From Actinophytocola sp. (GTDB lineage: Bacteria; Actinomycetota; Actinomycetes; Mycobacteriales; Pseudonocardiaceae), in NCBI GenBank assembly GCA_009379975.1, contig WHSS01000015.1, positions 1-42,247 on the forward strand: a stretch of DNA of 42,247 nucleotides. The letters run 5' to 3'. Under the pieces are notes generated by a model that made no database searches, had not been told where the DNA came from, and saw nothing but the letters and a program-made list of their open reading frames with translations. A program made the position numbers and the translations under genes. Positions 17,930 through 41,983 of the stretch are shown in pieces. Numbering within the stretch: the stretch's first letter is position 1; each line of letters starts with the position of its first letter.

Positions 17930-19507
17930 TTAGTTGATGCGCTCGTACGCGGGCAGCGTCAAGAAGTCGGGGAACTCCTCTGCCAGCGCGACCTGCTCGA
18001 ACAGCTCAGCCGCGGGATCGAGCAGGTCGGCACCGATAACCTCGGACAGCTCCTTGCGGACCTCGGCCAGCACCTCACGCACCAGTTCCGCGGTGACCTT
18101 CGTGCCGCCGTCGAGTTCGACGCCGTTGTTCACCCACTGCCAGATCTGCGAGCGCGAGATCTCGGCCGTCGCGGCGTCCTCCATGAGATTGTGGATCGCC
18201 GCCGCGCCGTTGCCGCCGAGCCAGGACGCGATGTAACGCACGCCGACGTCTACCGCCGCGCGGAGGCCGGCCTCGGTGGCCGCGCCCGGGGTCGAAGCCA
18301 CGTCGAGCAACTGCTCAGCGGTCACCGAAACCTCGTCGCGCGTCCGGTCGAGCTGGTTCGGCTTGTCGCCGAGCACGCCGTCGAAAATCTCCCGGCACAC
18401 CGGCACCAGGCCGGGGTGTGCCACCCAGGAGCCGTCGAATCCGTCGCCTGCTTCGCGCGTCTTGTCGTCGCGCACCTTGGCCAGCGCCTGCTCGGTGACC
18501 TCGGGGTCGCGGCGGTTCGGGATGAACGCGGCCATGCCGCCGATGGCGAACGCACCGCGCTTGTGACAGGTGCGCACCAGCAACTCGGTGTAGGCCCGCA
18601 TGAACGGCGCGGTCATCGTCACCGCGTTGCGGTCGGGCAGCGTGAACTTCGAGCCCGCGTCGCGGAAGTACTTGATCACGCTGAACAGGTAGTCCCAGCG
18701 GCCCGCGTTGAGCCCGGAGGCGTGCTCGCGCAGCTCATAGAGGATCTCCTCCATCTCGAACGCGGCCGGGATCGTTTCGATCAGCACGGTGGCGCGCACG
18801 GTGCCGTGCGGGATGCCCAGCTCCCGCTCGGCGTGCGTGAACACGTCGTTCCACAGCCGCGCTTCGAGGTGGCTTTCCATTTTGGGCAGGTAGTAGAACG
18901 GCCCGGCGCCGCGCTCGGCCAGGTAGGCCGCGTTGTGGAAGAAGTGGAGGCCGAAGTCGACCAGCGCGCCGACGGCGGGCGCGCCGTCGATCTCGAGGCC
19001 ATGCTCGGGCAGGTGCCAGCCGCGCGGGCGGACGACGACGGTCGGGTGTTCGACATCAGTACGCAGCTCGTAGGACTTCTCCGCCGTCGTGAGCGAGATG
19101 TTCTTCCGCGCGGAGTCGGCGAGGTTGACCTGGCCGGAGACCACATTCGCCCAGTGCGGCGTGTTGGCGTCCTCCAGGTCGGCCAGCCACACCTTGGCGC
19201 CGGAGTTCAGCGCATTGATCGTCATCTTGCGCTCGGTGGGCCCGGTGATTTCCACCCGCCGGTCGCGCAGCGCGGCGGGCGCCTCTGCGACCCGCCAATC
19301 ACCGTCCCGCACGTGCTGGGTCTCGGGCAGGAAATCCAGTTTGCCGGTGCGTGACGCCTCTTCGCGACGCGTTGTGCGCGCCCGCAGCAGCTCGTCACGG
19401 CGCGTGGCGAACGCCTGGTGCAGGCCACCGACGAAGGCCAGCGCGTCGGGCGTGAGGATCTCCTCCCCGCGCTCAACCTCGCCGCCGAGAACACGAACAT
19501 CTGACAT
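17930..19507 (-). CDS. aceB: malate synthase A
   Basis: Malate synthase condenses glyoxylate with acetyl-CoA to malate. The 525-residue protein shows KMTINALNSGAKVWLADLED, VLIETIPAAFEMEEILYELR, GRWDYLFSVIKYF and the signature FAIGGMAAFIPNRRDPEV … DGSWVAHPGLVPV. The ATG at 19507 is preferred to the GTG at 19525 because AGGGG lies upstream. It is divergent from the AllR-like regulator and shares its operator region, so it serves glyoxylate made from ureides rather than (or as well as) the isocitrate shunt; no isocitrate lyase is seen. Confidence 0.96.
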   Translation of the reverse strand: MSDVRVLGGEVERGEEILTPDALAFVGGLHQAFATRRDELLRARTTRREEASRTGKLDFLPETQHVRDGDWRVAEAPAALRDRRVEITGPTERKMTINALNSGAKVWLADLEDANTPHWANVVSGQVNLADSARKNISLTTAEKSYELRTDVEHPTVVVRPRGWHLPEHGLEIDGAPAVGALVDFGLHFFHNAAYLAERGAGPFYYLPKMESHLEARLWNDVFTHAERELGIPHGTVRATVLIETIPAAFEMEEILYELREHASGLNAGRWDYLFSVIKYFRDAGSKFTLPDRNAVTMTAPFMRAYTELLVRTCHKRGAFAIGGMAAFIPNRRDPEVTEQALAKVRDDKTREAGDGFDGSWVAHPGLVPVCREIFDGVLGDKPNQLDRTRDEVSVTAEQLLDVASTPGAATEAGLRAAVDVGVRYIASWLGGNGAAAIHNLMEDAATAEISRSQIWQWVNNGVELDGGTKVTAELVREVLAEVRKELSEVIGADLLDPAAELFEQVALAEEFPDFLTLPAYERIN

Positions 19508-19559
19508 GCGAAACACCCCTGCCACTTGTGCTTGGTTACCCTACAGAACGGACTATAGT

Positions 19560-19766: not shown

Positions 19767-20549
19767 GTGGCGCCGCGTAATTCGGGACGCGAAGGCACTG
19801 GCGGAGTGCAGTCGCTACAGCGAGCCTTCGAGTTGCTCGAAGGGCTGGCCGACACCGCGGGCGAAGCGAGCCTGTCCGAGTTGGCGGCCACCACCGGCCT
19901 GCCGATGCCCACCATTCACCGGCTGATCCGCACCCTGGTCGACCTGGGCTATGTCCGCCAGAACGCCAACCGCCGCTACGCCCTCGGTTCGCGCCTGATC
20001 CGGCTCGGCGAGAACGCCAGCAGGCAGTTCGGCACCTGGACCCGCCCGTTTCTCACCGAACTCGTCGACGTCATCGGCGAGACGGCCAACCTCGCCGTCC
20101 TCGAACGCGACGAGGTCGTCTACGTCGCACAGGTGCCGTCCAAGCACTCGATGCGCATGTTCACCGAGGTCGGCCGCAGGCTGCTCCCCCATGGCACCGG
20201 GGTGGGCAAGGCGATGCTCTCGCAACTGCCCGCCGACGACGTGCGAGCCCTGCTCAAGCGCACCGGCATGGCGGCCTACACACCCCACACCCACACCGAC
20301 CCCGACGAGTTCATCGCGCACCTGTCCGAGATCGCCGGACAGGGATTCGCGGTCGACGAGAGCGAGCAGGAGGTCGGCGTGCGCTGCATCGCCGTCCCGG
20401 TGACCGGTGGCCCGGTGCCTGCCGCGGTGTCGGTTTCCGGCCCGGAGGGGCGCCTCACCCTGGACGCGGCCGAGCGCATCGCGCCGATCGTCGTCGATGT
20501 CGCCGCCCGGCTGTCGAAGCGGTTGGCCGAGGACGACTTCCTCACCTGA
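19767..20549 (+). CDS. allR: IclR family regulator, probable AllR
   Basis: The product is a 260-residue IclR-family repressor with an N-terminal winged helix (residues about 12-75: LQRAFELLEGLADTAGE, SLSELAATTGLPMPTIHRL) and a C-terminal effector domain (GETANLAVLERDEVVYVAQ … HGTGVGKAMLSQLP … FAVDESEQEVGVRCIAVPV). In Streptomyces coelicolor AllR controls allantoin and glyoxylate genes including malate synthase and gcl. The position between aceB and the hyi-gcl-allantoicase operon, each preceded by similar operators, fits that role. The GTG at 19767 follows GAGAGGAGAGG. Confidence 0.88.
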   Translation: MAPRNSGREGTGGVQSLQRAFELLEGLADTAGEASLSELAATTGLPMPTIHRLIRTLVDLGYVRQNANRRYALGSRLIRLGENASRQFGTWTRPFLTELVDVIGETANLAVLERDEVVYVAQVPSKHSMRMFTEVGRRLLPHGTGVGKAMLSQLPADDVRALLKRTGMAAYTPHTHTDPDEFIAHLSEIAGQGFAVDESEQEVGVRCIAVPVTGGPVPAAVSVSGPEGRLTLDAAERIAPIVVDVAARLSKRLAEDDFLT

Positions 20550-20777: not shown

Positions 20778-21665
20778 ATGAACCGCTTCGAGGTGAACTG
20801 CTCGATCCTGTTCGGCGAGCTCCCGCTGCTGGAGCGGCCCGCGGCGGCGAAGGCAGCGGGCTTCGACGCCGTCGAGTTCTGGTGGCCCTTCGCCGAGGCC
20901 GTGCCCGCCGACAAGGACGTGGACGCGTTCGTCGCCGCGATCGCCGACGCCGGGGTGTCGCTGGTCGGCCTGAACTTCGTCGCGGGCGACATGCCGGCGG
21001 GCGACCGCGGCCTGGTGTCCTGGCTGGGGCGCGAGCAGGAGTTCCGCGACAACGCCGAGGTCGTCGCCGCGATCGGTGAGCGCACCGGATGCCGCGCGTT
21101 CAACGCGCTCTACGGCAACCGCATCGAAGGCGCGGACCCGGCCGCCCAGGACGAGCTGGCCACGGAGAACCTGCACCACGCCGCCAAGGCGGTCGAGGCG
21201 ATCGGCGGGACCGTGCTGATCGAGCCGGTCAGCGGCGCCCCGCGCTACCCGCTGCTCACCGCGGCGGACGCCGTCGCCGTGATCGACCGCGCGGCCGAGC
21301 GCGGCGCGAGCAACTTCGCACTGCTCGCCGACCTCTACCACCTGGCCGTCAACGGCGATGACGTCGCCCGCGCCATCAACGATCACGCCGGTCGCATCGG
21401 CCACGTGCAAATCGCCGACGCGCCCGGCCGCCATGAGCCCGGCACCGGGGAACTCGACCTCGATGGCTACCTCACCCAGCTCCGCCACGTCGGCTACGAC
21501 GGCTGGATCGGGCTCGAATACAACCCCTCCCGTCGCCCGACCACCACCCCTCATGGAGACGCTTCGCGTCCAGTGTCCTCGGGCGCCAGCGCCGATAGTT
21601 TCGGCTGGATCAACCGCTCCGCAGAACGCGCGACCGGCACCGTCGGTCGAGCAACACCCCACTGA
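20778..21665 (+). CDS. hyi: hydroxypyruvate isomerase family protein
   Basis: Hyi interconverts hydroxypyruvate and tartronate semialdehyde next to glyoxylate carboligase. The 295-residue TIM-barrel protein shows FDAVEFWWPF, GLNFVAGDMPAGDRGL, VLIEPVSGAPRYPL, LLADLYHLAVNGDD, GHVQIADAPGRHEPGTGELD and WIGLEYNPS. The family normally ends some 25-30 residues earlier (EYxPS…SFGWL). Here about 20 low-complexity residues lie between EYNPS and DSFGWI, and the last 15 residues are encoded by a junction repeat. First gene of the operon; the start is fixed by the MNRFEVNCSILF homology. Confidence 0.93.
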   Translation: MNRFEVNCSILFGELPLLERPAAAKAAGFDAVEFWWPFAEAVPADKDVDAFVAAIADAGVSLVGLNFVAGDMPAGDRGLVSWLGREQEFRDNAEVVAAIGERTGCRAFNALYGNRIEGADPAAQDELATENLHHAAKAVEAIGGTVLIEPVSGAPRYPLLTAADAVAVIDRAAERGASNFALLADLYHLAVNGDDVARAINDHAGRIGHVQIADAPGRHEPGTGELDLDGYLTQLRHVGYDGWIGLEYNPSRRPTTTPHGDASRPVSSGASADSFGWINRSAERATGTVGRATPH

Positions 21666-22775: not shown

Positions 22776-24550
<1,775 letters not shown>

Positions 24551-24554
<4 letters not shown>

Positions 24555-25693
24555 GCGCGCACGTCCTGCTCGCGCCCGACAAGTTCAAGGGCTCGCTGTC
24601 CGCGCCGCAGGTCGCCGAGCGCGTCGCCACCGGGCTGCTGCGGGCATCGCCGGGTCTGGACATCCGGCAGGTGCCGGTTGCCGATGGTGGTGACGGCACG
24701 CTCGACGCCGCGATCGCCGCGGGCTACCGCAGGGTGCCGGTGCGGGCCAGTGGCCCCACCGGTGAGCCGGTCGACACCGCCTACGCCGAGCGCGATGGCA
24801 CCGCGGTCGTCGAACTGGCCGACGTCTCCGGGCTGGGCCTGCTACCGGGCGGCAAGCTCGAATCGCTGCGTGCGTCGTCCTTCGGCACCGGCGAAGTGCT
24901 CCGGGCGGCGCTGGACACCGGCTGCCGGAGCATCGTGCTCGGGCTCGGCGGCAGCGCGTGCACCGACGGCGGCGCGGGCATGCTGCAAGCGTTGGGCGTC
25001 CGCTTGCTCGACGCTTCGGGCACCGAACTCCGCCCCGGTGGCGGCGCACTGCGCGAGCTCGCCCAGGTCGACATCACCGGCCTCCACCCGGGAGTCGCCG
25101 ACGCCGAGATCGTGGTGGCCAGCGATGTCGACAACCCGCTGCTCGGCGAGCACGGCGCGGCCGCGGTCTACGGGCCACAGAAGGGCGCCGACCGCGAGCA
25201 GGTCGAACTCCTCGACAGCGCGCTGGCCAGGCTGGCCGAGGTGCTCGGAGCCACCGGCGTCGCCGAACGGCCGGGCGCGGGGGCGGCGGGCGGTGTCGGC
25301 TTCGCCGCGATGGCGGTGCTCGGCGCGGCGTTGCGGCCGGGTATCGACTACCTGCTCGAACTGGTCGGCTTCCCGGCGCAGCTCCCGAAGGCCGCCGTCG
25401 TGATCACCGGCGAAGGCTCGCTCGACGAGCAGACGCTGCGAGGTAAGGCGCCCGCCGGGGTGGCGGACGCCGCGCGGGCTGCCGGCGTGCCGGTACTCGC
25501 CGTCGCGGGCCGATGTGTACTCAGCGCCGCCACACTCACCGAGGCCGGGTTCTCGGGGGCGTTCGCGCTCACCGACATCGAGCCCGACGCCGAGCGCTGC
25601 ATCGCCGAGGCGGGCCCGCTGTTGGAACGCCTCGCCACCGAACGCATCGCGAAGGAACTCGAGCGGTGCCTGCCGTCAGGAGGAACCAGTTGA
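24551..25693 (+). CDS. glxK: glycerate 2-kinase
   Basis: This kinase phosphorylates glycerate to feed glycolysis; the family (GlxK/GarK, type I glycerate kinase) makes 2-phosphoglycerate. The 380-residue protein begins [20 protein letters not shown] and contains [46 protein letters not shown] and [23 protein letters not shown]. The ATG at 24551 overlaps the gcl stop; the stop overlaps the allantoicase TTG start. Confidence 0.95.
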
Positions 25694-26880
25694 CCAGTCC
25701 ACGCTTCACCGAGCTACCCGACATCGCAGGCAGGATGCTGGGCGGCGCGGTCGTCGATGCCAATGACGAGTTCTTCGCCGAGAAGGAGAACCTGCTCAAC
25801 CCGGAGCCTGCGGTGTATCACCCGCACACTTTCGGGCACAAGGGCCAGATCTACGACGGCTGGGAAACCCGGCGCCGCCGCGAGCCCGGGCACGACTGGG
25901 CGGTGATCCGGCTGGGTGCTCCCGGGGTCATCCGCGGCGTCGATGTGGACACCGCGTTCTTCAAGGGCAACTACCCGGAGCACTGCTCGGTGGAAGCCGC
26001 GTCGGTGCCCGGCTATCCCTCCCCCGAGGAACTGCGCGGCGAGGGCGTCGCGTGGGTCGAGATCGTCGGCCGCTCCGCGCTGCAAGGCGACACCGCCAAC
26101 CTGTTCCCGGTCAACAGCGAACAACGCTTCACCCATGTGCGGCTCAACATCTTCCCCGACGGCGGCGTTGCCCGGCTCCGGGTGCACGGCGATGTCGTCG
26201 CGGACCCGCGCTGGTTCACCGGGGTGCCGCTGGACCTGGCGGCCATGGAGAACGGCGGTGCCGTCACCGACTGCTCCAACGGCTTCTTCGGCACCCCGGC
26301 CAACCTGCTGCTGCCCGGCAACGCCCGGGTAATGGGCGAAGGCTGGGAAACCGCCCGGCGCCGCGGCGATGGCAACGAGTGGGTCGGCGTGCGACTGGCC
26401 GAAGAGGGCGTCATCAGCCAGGTCGAGATCGACACCACGCACTTCAAGGGCAATGCGCCCGGCTGGTTCCGCCTCACCGGGGGCACCGATCCGGATCGGC
26501 TGGAGGACTGGGTCGAGCTCATCGGCCGTACCCGGCTGCAGCCCGATACCCGGCACAGGTTCCCGGTGGTGGCGGACACGCCGGTGAAGCATGTGCGGGT
26601 TGATGCCTATCCCGATGGCGGCTTCGGGCGGCTGCGCGTCTACGGCGAGCTCACCGCGGCGGGCAGGGAGCGCGCCGGGCTGGCGTTCTTCGACCGGCTT
26701 CCGGCGGGCCATGCGGCAGCGGTGCTGGCCTCGGCCACGGGTGTCTCCGCTGAGGCCGCCGAGGTGGTGGCGTCCAAACGGCCGCTGGCCGACGCCGCGG
26801 GATTGCACGCCGTGCTCGACTCTGCCGGCGTGGACAGCGCCGCCGCCGAAGCCGTGAGCACCTTGATTCTCGGCGCCTGA
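25690..26880 (+). CDS. alc: allantoicase with a C-terminal UraD-like tail
   Basis: Allantoicase splits allantoate into ureidoglycolate and urea. The 396-residue protein has the duplicated jelly-roll repeat: FxKGNYPEHCS and FKGNAPGWF, two copies of GWETxRRR, and RLNIFPDGGVARLRVHG / RVDAYPDGGFGRLRVYG. After about residue 330 it carries some 65 helical residues (LAFFDRLPAGHAAAVLAS … VASKRPLADAAGLHAVLDSA) that resemble the first third of UraD but lack the catalytic part. The start is TTG at 25690: AGGAGG lies 6 nt upstream and TTGA overlaps the glxK stop. Confidence 0.94.
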   Translation: MTSPRFTELPDIAGRMLGGAVVDANDEFFAEKENLLNPEPAVYHPHTFGHKGQIYDGWETRRRREPGHDWAVIRLGAPGVIRGVDVDTAFFKGNYPEHCSVEAASVPGYPSPEELRGEGVAWVEIVGRSALQGDTANLFPVNSEQRFTHVRLNIFPDGGVARLRVHGDVVADPRWFTGVPLDLAAMENGGAVTDCSNGFFGTPANLLLPGNARVMGEGWETARRRGDGNEWVGVRLAEEGVISQVEIDTTHFKGNAPGWFRLTGGTDPDRLEDWVELIGRTRLQPDTRHRFPVVADTPVKHVRVDAYPDGGFGRLRVYGELTAAGRERAGLAFFDRLPAGHAAAVLASATGVSAEAAEVVASKRPLADAAGLHAVLDSAGVDSAAAEAVSTLILGA

Positions 26881-26909
26881 GCATTCCCCATTACCTACAG
26901 GAGACCCCG

Positions 26910-27290
26910 ATGGTTTACATGTTCCTCAACGGCGGCGGCATGCGCGGCGGCGACATTCACCACCAACTGCTGGGCGCGCCCCTTGTCAAGGAGACGAACA
27001 CCGCCCCGAAGTACCGGTTCTACTCGGTCGACGACCGCTATCCAGTGCTCGACCCGGTCGACTCCGATGGGGTTGCGGTGGCCGGTGAGCTGTACGAGCT
27101 GCCGATGGAGACGCTGCGGGATTCGCTCCTGCCCGCCGAACCACCGGAAGTCGAACTGGGCGTCATCGAACTCGAAGACGGCACGCCGTCGTTCGCGGTG
27201 GTCCTGCGACGAGAGTTCAAGTGCCAAGCGACGCTCGCCGACATCTCCGACATCGGCTCCTGGCGGAAATACCGCGCCACGACGGGTTAG
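26910..27290 (+). CDS. stand-alone AtzF-C / GGCT-like protein
   Basis: The product is a 126-residue protein that reads like the C-terminal domain of allophanate hydrolase (AtzF), of the gamma-glutamylcyclotransferase-like fold: FLNGGGMRGGDIHHQLLGAP, NTAPKYRFYSVDDRYPVLDPV, GVAVAGELYELP, LGVIELEDGTPSFAVVL and ISDIGSWRKYRA. No amidase domain is present. It is 29 bp downstream of allantoicase with AGGAGA before the ATG, so it is in the same operon. Possible roles are ureidoglycolate or allophanate/urea handling; see findings. The fold is reasonably clear, the reaction is not. Confidence 0.8.
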   Translation: MVYMFLNGGGMRGGDIHHQLLGAPLVKETNTAPKYRFYSVDDRYPVLDPVDSDGVAVAGELYELPMETLRDSLLPAEPPEVELGVIELEDGTPSFAVVLRREFKCQATLADISDIGSWRKYRATTG

Positions 27291-32666: not shown

Positions 32667-32712
32667 GTCGTGAGTGATGAAGCGTGCCCCAACGTGCACT
32701 TTCACGCACGAG
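32667..32712. repeat. GTCGTGAGTGAT…CACGCACGAG palindromic repeat, copy 3
   Basis: This is the third member of the family seen on both sides of the Sir2 gene. It lies in the pucR-uraD divergent region, 32 bp upstream of the pucR start. Confidence 0.75.
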
Positions 32713-32826
32713 GGCAGCTTAGCGCCTCGATTTGGAGGATCCTACGAACATCGGGGCATCACACCACCGGTCTTTCATGCCTCCTGCCACTGGTCGCCGA
32801 GCCGCGCGGTTGGTGTACTTCTACAC

Positions 32827-33354
32827 ATGGCGGAAATCACACTCCACCCGCACGAGCGGGCGCTGACCAGGTTGAATGGTCTCAGCGCCGAGGCGGCCAG
32901 GCGAGAGCTGCTCACGTGCTGCGCCGCGACCGACCTCGCGGACTCGGTAGCCGCAAGCAGGCCGTATGAATCTTTGGATGATCTGCTGAACGCGTCCGAT
33001 GACGCCATCGCGAAGCTGACCGAGAACGGCATCGCCGAGGCGTTGGCCGCGCACCCGAGGATCGGGCAGCGCGCCGACGGCGAGGGCCGCGAGGCCGACT
33101 GGTCCCGTCGCGAGCAGTCCGGCGCGGCGGACGCGTCACCCGCGGTCAAGCGAGCGCTGGCCGAAGGCAACGCCGCCTACGAGCAACGTTTCGACCAGGT
33201 GTTCCTCATCTGCGCCGCCGGGCTTTCCGCCGAAACCATGCTGGCCGACCTGCACACCCGGCTGGGCAACGACCCGGCGACCGAACGTGCCGTGGTCCGG
33301 GAAGAACTGCGCAAGATCACCCGGCTACGGCTGCGGAAGCTGGTGGATTCATGA
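32827..33354 (+). CDS. uraD: OHCU decarboxylase
   Basis: UraD decarboxylates 2-oxo-4-hydroxy-4-carboxy-5-ureidoimidazoline to S-allantoin. The 175-residue helical protein keeps the catalytic residues: His76 in AAHPRIGQ and Glu96 in SRREQSGA, plus VFLICAAGLSAETML near the C-terminus. It starts at ATG 32827 with no clear ribosome site, so a leaderless mRNA is possible. The stop overlaps the hiuH start (ATGA). It is the only catalytically complete UraD module in the window. Confidence 0.94.
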   Translation: MAEITLHPHERALTRLNGLSAEAARRELLTCCAATDLADSVAASRPYESLDDLLNASDDAIAKLTENGIAEALAAHPRIGQRADGEGREADWSRREQSGAADASPAVKRALAEGNAAYEQRFDQVFLICAAGLSAETMLADLHTRLGNDPATERAVVREELRKITRLRLRKLVDS

Positions 33355-33677
33355 GCCTGTCGACCCACGTCCTGGACGCCGCGACCGGCCGCCCCGCCGC
33401 CGGGATCCGGGTGCGCATGGAAAGCCACGAGAACGGCGCCTGGGTCACCATGGCCGAGGCGGCCACCGACGCCGACGGGCGCATCCGCGAGTTCACCGAG
33501 GCCGGACCACGCGCGGGCATGCATCGCCTGGTCTTCGACACCGCGGGCTACTTCGACGGCACGCCGTCCTTCTACCCCGAGGTTGCGGTGACGTTCCAGG
33601 TCACCGACTCGGCCGAACACCACCACGTACCCCTGCTGCTCAGTCCGTTCGCCTACTCGACCTACCGAGGGAGTTAG
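33351..33677 (+). CDS. hiuH: 5-hydroxyisourate hydrolase (transthyretin-like)
   Basis: This enzyme hydrolyses 5-hydroxyisourate, the uricase product, to OHCU. The 108-residue transthyretin-fold protein has STHVLDAATGRPA at the N-terminus, GMHRLVFDTAGYF in the middle, and the diagnostic C-terminal HHVPLLLSPFAYSTYRGS. It is translationally coupled to uraD. Confidence 0.97.
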   Translation: MSLSTHVLDAATGRPAAGIRVRMESHENGAWVTMAEAATDADGRIREFTEAGPRAGMHRLVFDTAGYFDGTPSFYPEVAVTFQVTDSAEHHHVPLLLSPFAYSTYRGS

Positions 33678-33679
33678 CC

Positions 33680-33751
33680 ATGCGCGACCGGCACCGACGA
33701 AGAGGTGATGGGGCAATGAGCGCATCACCATGCCGAACGGAGAGAGGCTGA
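33680..33751 (+). CDS. 23-codon mini-ORF bridging hiuH and uricase
   Basis: An ATG 2 bp after the hiuH stop opens a 23-codon frame (MRDRHRRRGDGAMSASPCRT…) whose TGA overlaps the uricase ATG (TGATG). It contains the GCGCGACCGGCACCG junction block at 33682-33696. As with the other bridges, a coupling function is more likely than a functional peptide. Confidence 0.35.
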   Translation: MRDRHRRRGDGAMSASPCRTERG

Positions 33752-34632
33752 TGACACCGACCATCCAACTGGGCGCGAACCAGTACGGCAAGGCAGAGAC
33801 CCGCGTCGTGCGTGTCAACCGCAGCGGCGGCGCGCACGAGATCACCGATCTCAACGTCTCCACCGCGCTCTCCGGCGACCTCACCGACACCCACGTGACC
33901 GGTGACAACGCCAAGGTGCTGCCCACCGACACCCAGAAGAACACCGTGTTCGCTTTCGCCAAGGAGCACGGCATCGGCGAGATCGAGGAGTTCGGGCTGC
34001 ATCTGGCGCGGCACTTCGTCGACTCCCAGGAACCGATCCACCGCTCCCGCATCACCATCGAGCAATACTTCTGGGACCGCATCGGCGTCGGCGGCACGCC
34101 GGCGCCGCACTCGTTCCAGCGCTCCGGTGTGGAGACGAGGACGGCGACGGTGACCTACGACGGCACCACCTCATGGGTGGTCTCGGGCCTGCGGGACCTG
34201 GTCGTGCTCAACTCGACCGACTCCGAGTTCTGGGGCTACCCGAGGGATCGCTACACCACCTTGCCGGAGACGCACGAGCGCATCCTCGCCACCGCCGTCA
34301 ACGCGGAGTGGCGGCACGTGGCGGCGGAAGGCGACTGGGGCAAGTCCTACGCGGAGGTGCGCAGGCACCTGGTCGAGGCGTTCGCGCAGACGCACAGCCT
34401 GTCGTTGCAGCAGACGCTCTACGCCATGGGCAGCCGGGTGCTGGACAACCGCCCGGAGATCGCCGAGGTTCGCCTGTCGCTGCCGAACAAGCACCACTTC
34501 CTGGTCGACCTCTCCCCCTTCGGCCTGACCAACGACGACGAGGTGTACTTCGCCGCCGACCGCCCTTACGGCCTGATCGAGGGCAACGTGCTGCGCGACG
34601 ACTCACCCGAACCCGGCCTGGCTTGGGGGTGA
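33751..34632 (+). CDS. pucL: urate oxidase (uricase)
   Basis: Uricase oxidises urate to 5-hydroxyisourate without cofactor. The 293-residue protein shows LGANQYGKAETRVVRV (active-site Lys), VLPTDTQKNTVFAFAKEHGI (Thr of the triad), LNSTDSEFWGYPRDRYTTLP and LPNKHHFLVDLSPFGL. The ATG at 33751 is chosen because MTPTIQLGANQYG is where homologues start. The next gene begins 10 bp after the stop. Confidence 0.97.
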   Translation: MTPTIQLGANQYGKAETRVVRVNRSGGAHEITDLNVSTALSGDLTDTHVTGDNAKVLPTDTQKNTVFAFAKEHGIGEIEEFGLHLARHFVDSQEPIHRSRITIEQYFWDRIGVGGTPAPHSFQRSGVETRTATVTYDGTTSWVVSGLRDLVVLNSTDSEFWGYPRDRYTTLPETHERILATAVNAEWRHVAAEGDWGKSYAEVRRHLVEAFAQTHSLSLQQTLYAMGSRVLDNRPEIAEVRLSLPNKHHFLVDLSPFGLTNDDEVYFAADRPYGLIEGNVLRDDSPEPGLAWG

Positions 34633-39963: not shown

Positions 39964-40042
39964 GGACGCGCGCCGCGCGGTGCCAGGCCATCGCGCTGCC
40001 GAAAGGCGCCCTTCACGCGAGCTCGCACACCAGGGAGCGGTC

Positions 40043-41983
40043 ATGTTCGGCAACACACGCACCACGAAACAGCCATCCGAGTCCCCACCGAGAAAATCCG
40101 CCAAGCACCCCGTCGACGAGGTGCTGCCGGTACCCAAGCTTGCGGTATACGGCTTGCAGCACGTGCTCACCTTCTACGCCGGCGCGGCGATCGTGCCGCT
40201 GCTGGTGGCGGGAGCGCTCGGCCTGGAAGGCGCGCAGTTGGCCTTCCTGATCAACGCGAACCTGTTCACCTGTGGCATCGCGACGCTGATCCAGACCATC
40301 GGGTTCTGGAAGATCGGGGTGCGCCTGCCCGTGGTACAGGGCACCACCTTCGTCGCGGTCGGGCCGATGATTGCCATCGGGTTGTCCAAGGGCGGCGGCG
40401 TGCCGGGGTTACTGGAAATCTACGGCGCGGTGATCATCTCGGGCGTCTTCGCCTTCGTGATCGCGCCGTTCTTCGCCAAGCTGGTCCGGTTCTTCCCGCC
40501 GATCGTGACCGGCACGGTGATCACCAGCATCGGGATCGTGCTGCTGCCGGTCGCCGCACTCGAAGCGGGCGGCGGCAACGCCGATGACCCGGAGTTCGGC
40601 AGCCTGCCCAACCTCGCGCTCGCCGCGATCACACTGCTGCTGATCCTGCTGATGTACCGGTTCTTCCGCGGCTTCGCGGCCACCATCGCCGTGCTGCTCG
40701 GCCTGATGGCGGGCACCGGCATCGCTGTGGCGCTCGGCCGGGTGGAGTTCGGCGGCATCGCGGAGGCGTCCTGGGTCGGCGTCATCACGCCGTTCCACTT
40801 CGGACTGCCCACCTTCGGGCTCGCCGCGATCACCTCGATGCTCATCGTCATGCTGATCACCGCGGTCGAGATGACCGGCGACACCCTTGCCGTCGGCGAG
40901 ATCGTCCGCAAGAAGGTGGGCCCGGACGGCATCGCGCGGGCCATCCGCAGCGGCGGGCTGTCCACGACCATCGGCGGCGTGCTCAACTCGTTCCCGTACA
41001 CCAGCTACTCGGCCAACGCCGGGCTGGTGCGGCTGACCGGGGTGCGTAGCCGGTTCGTGGTCGCGGCCGCGGGTGTCATGATGCTCGTCATCGGGCTGGT
41101 CCCGAAGACCGGCGCCGTGGTGGCGGCGATTCCGCATCCGGTGCTCGGTGGCGCTGGGCTGGTTCTGTTCGGGGCGGTCGGCGTCGTCGGCATCCAGATC
41201 CTGCGCCGCGCGGAGCTCACCGATCACCGCAACGTGGTCATCCTGGCCACCAGCCTCGGCTTCGCGCTGATCCCGGTGGCGTTCCCCAACTTCTACGCGC
41301 TGCTGCCGGCCGGGGCGCAGATGGTCTTCGCGAGCGGCATCACGATGGCCGCGCTGTCCGCGATCATCCTGAACCTCGTGTTCAACGAGTTCCGCCGCAA
41401 GCAGGCGGACCCGATCGACGCGCTGGCGCCGCCACCGTCGAAGGTGACGCTGGAGCAGGTCAACGCGATGCCGGACGCGGAGTTCGTCGAGCGGTTCGCC
41501 ACCGTTTTCCAGGGCGGTGCTTGGATCGCCGAGCGGGCGGCCCAGAAGCGGCCGTTCGACGCGGTGTACTCGCTGCGCCACGCGTTGCACAGTGCCTTGT
41601 TCGACGCGACGGTCGACAAGCAACTGCAGCTCATCCGGTCCTATCAGGATCTGGCGGGACCGGCGCTGGACGAGAAGCTGCTCGGGCCCGAGTCGCTGCG
41701 CGACCGCTGCGCGGCGGGGCTCGACAAGCTCGAGTCCGATGAGGACGAGCGGTTGCGTGAGATCAACGCGGCCTATCGGGAGAAGTTCGGCTTCCCGCTG
41801 GTGATCTGCGTCCGCGGCAGCACCAAGGAAGCGGTGCTGGCCACGGCGGAGTCCCGCTTGGGCAACTCCCCCGCACAAGAAACCGCCACGGCGCTGGTGG
41901 AGATCGCCAAGATCGCCAACCAGCGGCTCGCCGAACTCGTCGACGAACCAGCGGTCAACGCCGAGCAACCCGCGAACGCCTGA
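40043..41983 (+). CDS. NCS2 nucleobase permease fused to a UraD-fold domain
   Basis: The product is a 646-residue fusion. Residues about 30-460 are an NCS2/NAT nucleobase-cation symporter with 14 helices: LQHVLTFYAGAAIVPLL (helix 1 His), QGTTFVAVGPMIAIG, ITAVEMTGDTLAVGE (helix 8 Glu) and the signature region SANAGLVRLTGVRSRF, where Ala replaces the usual Gln/Glu/Pro. Residues about 467-635 are an OHCU-decarboxylase-like domain (TLEQVNAMPDAEFVERF … AYREKFGFPLVICVRG), but the catalytic AHPDLAG reads SYQDLAG (residues 533-539) and the SxxEQ Glu is Asp. Likely imports urate or xanthine; the tail looks non-catalytic. The ATG at 40043 follows GGGAG. Confidence 0.9.
   Translation: MFGNTRTTKQPSESPPRKSAKHPVDEVLPVPKLAVYGLQHVLTFYAGAAIVPLLVAGALGLEGAQLAFLINANLFTCGIATLIQTIGFWKIGVRLPVVQGTTFVAVGPMIAIGLSKGGGVPGLLEIYGAVIISGVFAFVIAPFFAKLVRFFPPIVTGTVITSIGIVLLPVAALEAGGGNADDPEFGSLPNLALAAITLLLILLMYRFFRGFAATIAVLLGLMAGTGIAVALGRVEFGGIAEASWVGVITPFHFGLPTFGLAAITSMLIVMLITAVEMTGDTLAVGEIVRKKVGPDGIARAIRSGGLSTTIGGVLNSFPYTSYSANAGLVRLTGVRSRFVVAAAGVMMLVIGLVPKTGAVVAAIPHPVLGGAGLVLFGAVGVVGIQILRRAELTDHRNVVILATSLGFALIPVAFPNFYALLPAGAQMVFASGITMAALSAIILNLVFNEFRRKQADPIDALAPPPSKVTLEQVNAMPDAEFVERFATVFQGGAWIAERAAQKRPFDAVYSLRHALHSALFDATVDKQLQLIRSYQDLAGPALDEKLLGPESLRDRCAAGLDKLESDEDERLREINAAYREKFGFPLVICVRGSTKEAVLATAESRLGNSPAQETATALVEIAKIANQRLAELVDEPAVNAEQPANA

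What the first reader, a model, noticed from the sequence alone, without database searches (positions are those of the whole stretch)
26910..27290. Candidate for the missing ureidoglycolate step
Allantoicase makes ureidoglycolate, and the operon uses glyoxylate (gcl, glxR, hyi, glxK, aceB), but no AllA-type ureidoglycolate lyase is visible. The gene directly after allantoicase encodes a free-standing copy of the AtzF C-terminal GGCT-like domain. Proteins of this fold act on small carbonyl-nitrogen compounds, and AtzF itself works on a urea derivative. It could be a ureidoglycolate lyase/hydrolase, or could handle urea carboxylation products.
Basis: inference. Interest (0 to 1): 0.7.

Follow-up and report, generated by a model that had tools for sequence, protein, structure and literature searches.

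The report
Candidate ureidoglycolate-splitting enzyme in actinobacteria
A small protein, related to the tail end of another urea-pathway enzyme, sits in the purine-degradation gene clusters of many actinobacteria that lack the usual enzyme for splitting ureidoglycolate, and is a good, still untested, candidate for doing that missing step.

Summary
Window 26910-27290 encodes a real 126-aa free-standing AH_C-domain protein ("AHC"), the last gene of a hyi-glxR-gcl-glxK-allantoicase-AHC operon. The held genome (86% complete) has no AllA (PF04115) and no M20-type ureidoglycolate amidohydrolase candidate.

AHC is a conserved clade of actinobacterial purine-catabolism clusters, well separated from AtzF C-terminal domains (support 100/99). 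In 49 named AHC genomes AllA is absent (0/49). 43 have allantoicase. The six without it, plus two more, all have the ureidoglycine aminohydrolase UGHY. Both enzymes make ureidoglycolate, and they swap in the same slot (AHC-allB-alc against AHC-allB-UGHY). This fits a step at ureidoglycolate, the only gap in the pathway. A shared earlier step is not formally excluded.

Complications: 36 of 49 full-pathway genomes of the order lack AHC; all 36 carry an uncharacterised aldolase-like protein, DUF6986 (PF22484), a second candidate. The four full-pathway genomes without DUF6986 all have AHC. Thirteen genomes with two allantoicases link one copy to AHC and the other to DUF6986. A sister AHC group sits beside hydantoinases instead.

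Verdict: a well-supported but biochemically untested candidate. The urea-carboxylation idea has no support.

The parts
26910..27290 (+). AHC: free-standing AH_C/GGCT-fold protein, 126 aa, candidate ureidoglycolate lyase
26899..26903 (+). ribosome-binding-like AGGAG, 7 nt before the AHC start
   Evidence: sequence
25690..26880 (+). allantoicase (TTG start overlapping the glxK stop; ~76-aa tail after the second repeat)
   Evidence: start codon inferred from the overlap and the upstream GGAGGAA
24551..25693 (+). glxK, glycerate kinase (ATGA overlap with the gcl stop)
   Evidence: Pfam PF02595 E 2e-117; coordinates
22776..24554 (+). gcl, glyoxylate carboligase
   Evidence: TIGR01504 1170 bits
21689..22588 (+). 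glxR-type tartronate semialdehyde reductase (NAD_binding_2/NAD_binding_11)
20778..21665 (+). hyi-type hydroxypyruvate isomerase
   Evidence: TIGR03234 E 1.4e-78 (below its cut-off)
19767..20549 (+). IclR-family regulator
17930..19525 (-). malate synthase (aceB), divergent from the operon
32674..33354 (+). OHCU decarboxylase
33351..33677 (+). HIU hydrolase
33730..34632 (+). uricase

Best explanation
AHC is an actinobacterial purine-catabolism enzyme that acts on (S)-ureidoglycolate, most likely as a metal-free lyase (ureidoglycolate -> glyoxylate + urea), replacing AllA by an unrelated fold. SHOWN: it is a conserved, separate clade of the AH_C family embedded in purine clusters; it occurs with a ureidoglycolate-making enzyme (allantoicase or UGHY) in every purine-clade AHC genome checked for both, and never with AllA. 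INFERRED: the substrate (the only pathway step without an assigned enzyme), the reaction (no metal-binding cluster is evident among the conserved residues, and the hemiaminal needs only acid/base help), and the residues (Glu77, near the catalytic Glu82 of gamma-glutamylamine cyclotransferase, as acid/base; clade-specific Arg12, Arg100 and Glu82 for substrate binding). The glyoxylate then goes through the gcl/glxR/hyi/glxK genes of the same operon. An amidohydrolase reaction on the same substrate is the second choice.
For: No PF04115 in the held genome, in 49 AHC genomes, or in 120 of 121 genomes of the order. No M20-type TIGR01879 match in the held genome. AHC in purine clusters: of 91 non-redundant loci, uricase within 8 genes in 56, allantoinase in 40, gcl in 38, allantoicase in 32. 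Order sample: 13 of 13 purine-clade AHC genomes have uricase against 54 of 121 overall (p 1e-5, not corrected for kinship). Allantoicase in 43 of 49; UGHY in all 8 AHC genomes without allantoicase (G037, G046, G123, G135, G150, G165, G166, G167) and in only 3 of the 44 with it (Fisher p 2e-7; about five lineages). Slot swap AHC-allB-alc (L056, L094, L118) against AHC-allB-UGHY (L110, L113, L126). All 4 full-pathway genomes of the order without DUF6986 have a standalone AHC (3 purine-clade, 1 hydantoinase-type). Glu77, Glu82 and Arg100 100%, Arg12 99% in 84 purine-clade proteins, not kept in AtzF C-domains.
Against: No activity data. 36 of 49 full-pathway genomes of the order lack AHC. 37 of 49 AHC genomes also have DUF6986, and some Amycolatopsis have both with one allantoicase, so AHC need not be the sole lyase. 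In those species AHC sits beside a purine permease, 5-10 kb from allantoicase. A sister group at 44-49% identity sits beside hydantoinases or dihydropyrimidinases, in one case (G021) in a genome without uricase or allantoinase. Allantoin and allantoate are also shared by both routes, so the swap alone does not fix the step. The held assembly is 86% complete. FAH-family or other non-orthologous lyases were not searched.
Confidence: 0.5

Rival explanations
1. DUF6986 (PF22484, ~408 aa, HpcH/HpaI-aldolase-like) is the real actinobacterial ureidoglycolate lyase, and AHC does something else in the pathway.
For: DUF6986 tracks allantoicase very closely (46 of 55 against 5 of 66, Fisher p 2e-18). Around allantoicase it can lie with allB-alc-aceB (L135) or next to UGHY (G037, G046, G123, G135). 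It carries HpcH/HpaI and malate-synthase TIM-barrel similarity, i.e. glyoxylate-type chemistry. In 6 Nocardia it lies 66-72 bp from the second allantoicase.
Against: It is absent from 12 of 49 AHC genomes, including all three Haloechinothrix species, which are among the window's nearest relatives, and has only weak partial matches in the held genome. Haloechinothrix still has the gcl-glxK-allantoicase-AHC operon.
Confidence: 0.25
2. AHC acts one or two steps earlier, on allantoin or allantoate (for example as an allantoin racemase or allantoinase helper), matching the hydantoinase-linked sister group.
For: Allantoinase is a frequent direct neighbour (downstream in 11 of 91), and four relatives sit beside hydantoinases, dihydropyrimidinases or allantoinase-like proteins.
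Against: OHCU decarboxylase should already give (S)-allantoin (general knowledge), so no racemase is needed, and the window has two OHCU domains. Many loci pair AHC with allantoicase or gcl rather than allantoinase.
Confidence: 0.12
3. AHC is an AtzF-like partial reaction or assembly domain (carbamate decarboxylation, or a structural subunit for another enzyme).
For: Same family as the C-domain of allophanate hydrolase, fold match Z 19-20. In AtzF the domain affects oligomeric state, not amidase activity (PMC3944691).
Against: No amidase domain partner among the conserved neighbours identified; free-standing proteins keep Glu77, Glu82, Arg12 and Arg100, which AtzF C-domains lack.
Confidence: 0.08
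4. No dedicated enzyme is needed: ureidoglycolate decays on its own, and AHC has an unrelated minor role.
For: Ureidoglycolate is unstable (general knowledge); G087 has uricase and allantoinase but no strong DUF6986, AHC or allantoicase.
Against: All 49 full-pathway genomes carry DUF6986 or a standalone AHC, and AHC is strongly kept in the clusters.
Confidence: 0.05

Closest known systems
PDB 5c5z, c4763, a free-standing AH_C protein of uropathogenic E. coli
   Same: Free-standing, same fold (Z 20.5, rmsd 1.6, 31% identity), keeps the Glu at position 77
   Different: A distant branch; E. coli plasmid relatives lie in an AllH-AllF-AllG-carbamate kinase-permease operon; no function known to me
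C-terminal domain of allophanate hydrolase / urea amidolyase (AtzF type; K. lactis 4iss, 5i8i)
   Same: Same Pfam family and fold
   Different: No amidase domain; separated with 100/99 support; clade-specific charged residues
Gamma-glutamylamine cyclotransferase GGACT (3jud)
   Same: GGCT fold (Z 14.5); Glu77 falls near its catalytic Glu82 (position extrapolated)
   Different: Only 20% identity; purine-cluster context; no glutamyl substrate implied
AllA ureidoglycolate lyase (PF04115)
   Same: Proposed to do the same reaction in the same pathway slot
   Different: No sequence match; the two never occur in the same genome in this sample

Membership tests
AH_C domain family (PF21986) | Score above Pfam's gathering cut-off over the whole domain | tested here: met
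   96.5 bits against 27, positions 3-122 of 123
Allophanate hydrolase (AtzF, TIGR02713) | N-terminal amidase domain and score above the model cut-off | tested here: not met
   126 aa, matches only the last ~120 positions, 50 bits against 511
AllA-type ureidoglycolate lyase (PF04115) | Sequence match to the family | tested here: not met
   Not among its Pfam hits; no match in the genome
AIG2/GGCT-like (PF06094) fold group | Family score and fold | tested here: met
   28.8 bits against 22.8; GGACT Z 14.5, 120 residues aligned
AIG2/GGCT-like (PF06094) fold group | Catalytic Glu at the GGACT Glu82 position | tested here: inconclusive
   Invariant Glu77 falls within about one residue by extrapolating the HMMER alignment, which stops at query 70 / chain 76
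AIG2/GGCT-like (PF06094) fold group | Cyclotransferase activity | not testable with these tools
   Needs assay
Ureidoglycolate lyase by function (EC 4.3.2.3) | Releases urea and glyoxylate from ureidoglycolate | not testable with these tools
   Needs assay
Ureidoglycolate lyase by function (EC 4.3.2.3) | Genomes have a ureidoglycolate-making enzyme | tested here: met
   Allantoicase or UGHY in all 52 purine-clade AHC genomes checked with both families
M20-type ureidoglycolate amidohydrolase | M20/hydantase family match | tested here: not met
   AHC has no such domain

The most novel reading that the evidence does not exclude
The free-standing AH_C clade is a new, non-orthologous ureidoglycolate lyase of actinobacteria with a GGCT fold, and DUF6986 is a second, independent one, so this step has been invented at least three times.
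Probability: 0.3. Interest if true: 0.75.

Novelty: new variant of a known kind. Interest (0 to 1): 0.6.

Why it matters
Only 1 of 121 genomes sampled from the order has AllA, although about half have allantoicase, so it has been unclear how these bacteria finish allantoin breakdown. This gives two concrete, assayable candidates (AHC and DUF6986), names species where only one of them is present, and proposes a first function for free-standing AH_C proteins, including relatives of the solved E. coli structure 5c5z.

Tried and rejected
Strict co-occurrence with allantoicase: rejected, since G037 and G046 have AHC without it; resolved by finding UGHY there. Mutual exclusion of AHC and DUF6986: rejected, since 37 of 49 AHC genomes have both. 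AllA hidden in the Solirubrobacterales AHC operon (189-aa ORF in L082): it is OHCU decarboxylase. Informative gene fusion of AHC (L101, 222 aa): the extra part has no match above noise. Phage relatives: none. Literature: no paper in the held library mentions DUF6986, and none links free-standing AH_C to ureidoglycolate in the searches made. The 86% complete genome could hide an AllA; nearest named relatives were used to cover this.

Full report
WHAT IS THERE. The ORF at 26910-27290 (+) is real: ATG start, AGGAG 7 nt upstream, 126 aa, 29 bp after the allantoicase stop. It is a complete AH_C domain and nothing else (PF21986 96.5 bits; NCBIfam allophanate hydrolase models match only at their C-terminal ends). 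The gene order on the + strand is IclR, hyi, glxR, gcl, glxK, allantoicase, AHC. From gcl to allantoicase the genes overlap (glxK ATG at 24551 inside the gcl stop; allantoicase TTG at 25690 inside the glxK stop). Uricase, HIU hydrolase, OHCU decarboxylase, xanthine dehydrogenase and permease genes lie downstream. Allantoinase is on another contig of the held assembly.

WHAT IS MISSING. From xanthine to glyoxylate the assembly has the expected enzymes except the one that uses ureidoglycolate. It has no PF04115 (AllA) and no match to TIGR01879, the M20-type hydantoinase/carbamoylase model; that this model would also catch M20-type ureidoglycolate amidohydrolases is my own knowledge. The assembly is 86% complete, so absence in this one genome is not proof. 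But AllA is also absent from all 49 named AHC genomes searched and from 120 of 121 genomes of the order.

AHC IS A PURINE-CLUSTER PROTEIN. A pattern scan found 212 relatives; the best 80, with loci from the order search, give 91 non-redundant neighbourhoods. Within eight genes: uricase 56, purine permease 46, xanthine dehydrogenase FAD subunit 42, allantoinase 40, PucR 39, gcl 38, OHCU 35, allantoicase 32. In the order sample all 13 purine-clade AHC genomes have uricase, against 54 of 121 overall. The tree splits the free-standing proteins from AtzF C-domains with 100/99 support, apart from the distant L018; the window protein groups with Haloechinothrix, Actinophytocola and other Pseudonocardiaceae. 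The tree rests on only 128 columns and many inner forks are weak.

THE SWAP. Forty-three of 49 AHC genomes have allantoicase. The six without it (G123, G135, G150, G165, G166, G167), and G037 and G046, which also lack it, all have UGHY, the bicupin ureidoglycine aminohydrolase (TIGR03214). UGHY is found in only 3 of the 44 AHC genomes with allantoicase (Fisher p 2e-7; genomes are related, and I count about five lineages). The two enzymes also replace each other in place: AHC-allB-alc in L056, L094 and L118, AHC-allB-UGHY in L110, L113 and L126, AHC-UGHY-allB in L090. Allantoicase and the allantoate amidohydrolase/UGHY route both end in ureidoglycolate (established pathway knowledge; the E. coli branch point is described in PMC11326118). 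So AHC does not depend on how ureidoglycolate is made. The swap is also compatible with an earlier shared step (allantoin or allantoate). The case for ureidoglycolate rests on it being the only step without an enzyme.

A SECOND CANDIDATE. Most allantoicase genomes of the order lack AHC. Looking at their loci turned up DUF6986. It is present at E < 1e-100 in 46 of 55 allantoicase genomes and 5 of 66 others, is HpcH/HpaI-aldolase-like, and can lie in an allB-alc-aceB cluster (L135). Of 49 genomes with uricase, allantoinase and allantoicase, 45 have DUF6986. The four that lack it (G000, G059, G105, G111) all have a free-standing AHC, although the one in G059 is of the hydantoinase-linked group. 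AHC and DUF6986 are not exclusive: 37 of 49 AHC genomes have both. But in thirteen genomes with two allantoicases, one copy lies on the AHC contig (26-90 bp away in eleven) and the other on the DUF6986 contig (66-72 bp away in six Nocardia). I read this as two alternative modules around allantoicase, one with the gcl route and one that can lie beside malate synthase. That they do the same reaction is an inference.

FOLD AND RESIDUES. The model is confident (mean pLDDT 94). It matches 5c5z (Z 20.5), the K. lactis allophanate hydrolase C-domain (Z 19-20) and gamma-glutamylamine cyclotransferase (Z 14.5). In 84 purine-clade proteins Asn7, Gly8, Gly13, Pro45, Glu77, Pro78, Glu82, Arg100, Ile112 and Trp118 are invariant and Arg12 is 99% kept. 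AtzF C-domains mostly have Val/Leu at 77 and do not keep 82, 100 or 12; the hydantoinase-linked group keeps Glu77 but mostly not Arg12 or Arg100. By extrapolating an HMMER alignment that stops six residues short, Glu77 falls within about one residue of the GGACT catalytic Glu82. I propose Glu77 as acid/base and the two Arg for the carboxylate. None of this is tested.

AGAINST. No activity is known. A sister group at 44-49% identity sits beside hydantoinases, dihydropyrimidinases or an allantoinase-like protein (L043, L045, L046, L047), in G021 without uricase or allantoinase. Its likely substrates are N-carbamoyl acids, of which ureidoglycolate is one, so a common chemistry is possible but unproven. 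The AtzF analogy is weak: AtzF without this domain keeps full activity on biuret (PMC3944691). In several Amycolatopsis AHC lies next to a purine permease, several kb from allantoicase, with DUF6986 also present. Counts treat related genomes as separate.

VERDICT.

Noticed in passing
L131:7672-8907; G030:C1:796915-798075; G127:C118:38097-39254: DUF6986 (PF22484), HpcH/HpaI-aldolase-like, tracks allantoicase across the order (46/55 against 5/66) and has no paper in the held library; a second candidate ureidoglycolate lyase.
   Followed up: partly
L150:3414-9621 (pAPEC-O2-ColV): On E. coli ColV-type plasmids the AHC relative (33% identity) lies in an AllH-AllF-AllG-carbamate kinase-AH_C-cytosine/purine permease operon; matches on 78 E. 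coli plasmid records.
   Followed up: partly
L043, L045, L046, L047: A sister AHC group (motif G[QT]AMSGG or close) sits beside hydantoinases, dihydropyrimidinases or an allantoinase-like protein, in one genome without uricase or allantoinase.
   Followed up: partly
39980-41983: Fusion of a xanthine/uracil permease with an OHCU decarboxylase domain, although a separate OHCU decarboxylase gene is present at 32674-33354.
   Followed up: no
26653-26880: Allantoicase carries a ~76-aa C-terminal tail after its second repeat with no Pfam match.
   Followed up: no
L144:6301-9589 (G000:C58): The allantoinase of the held genome lies on another contig behind a second gcl-like gene.
   Followed up: no
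L081 (JOAA01000032.1): The record titled Rhodococcus rhodnii carries an AHC and cluster nearly identical to Kibdelosporangium aridum; the title may be wrong.
   Followed up: no
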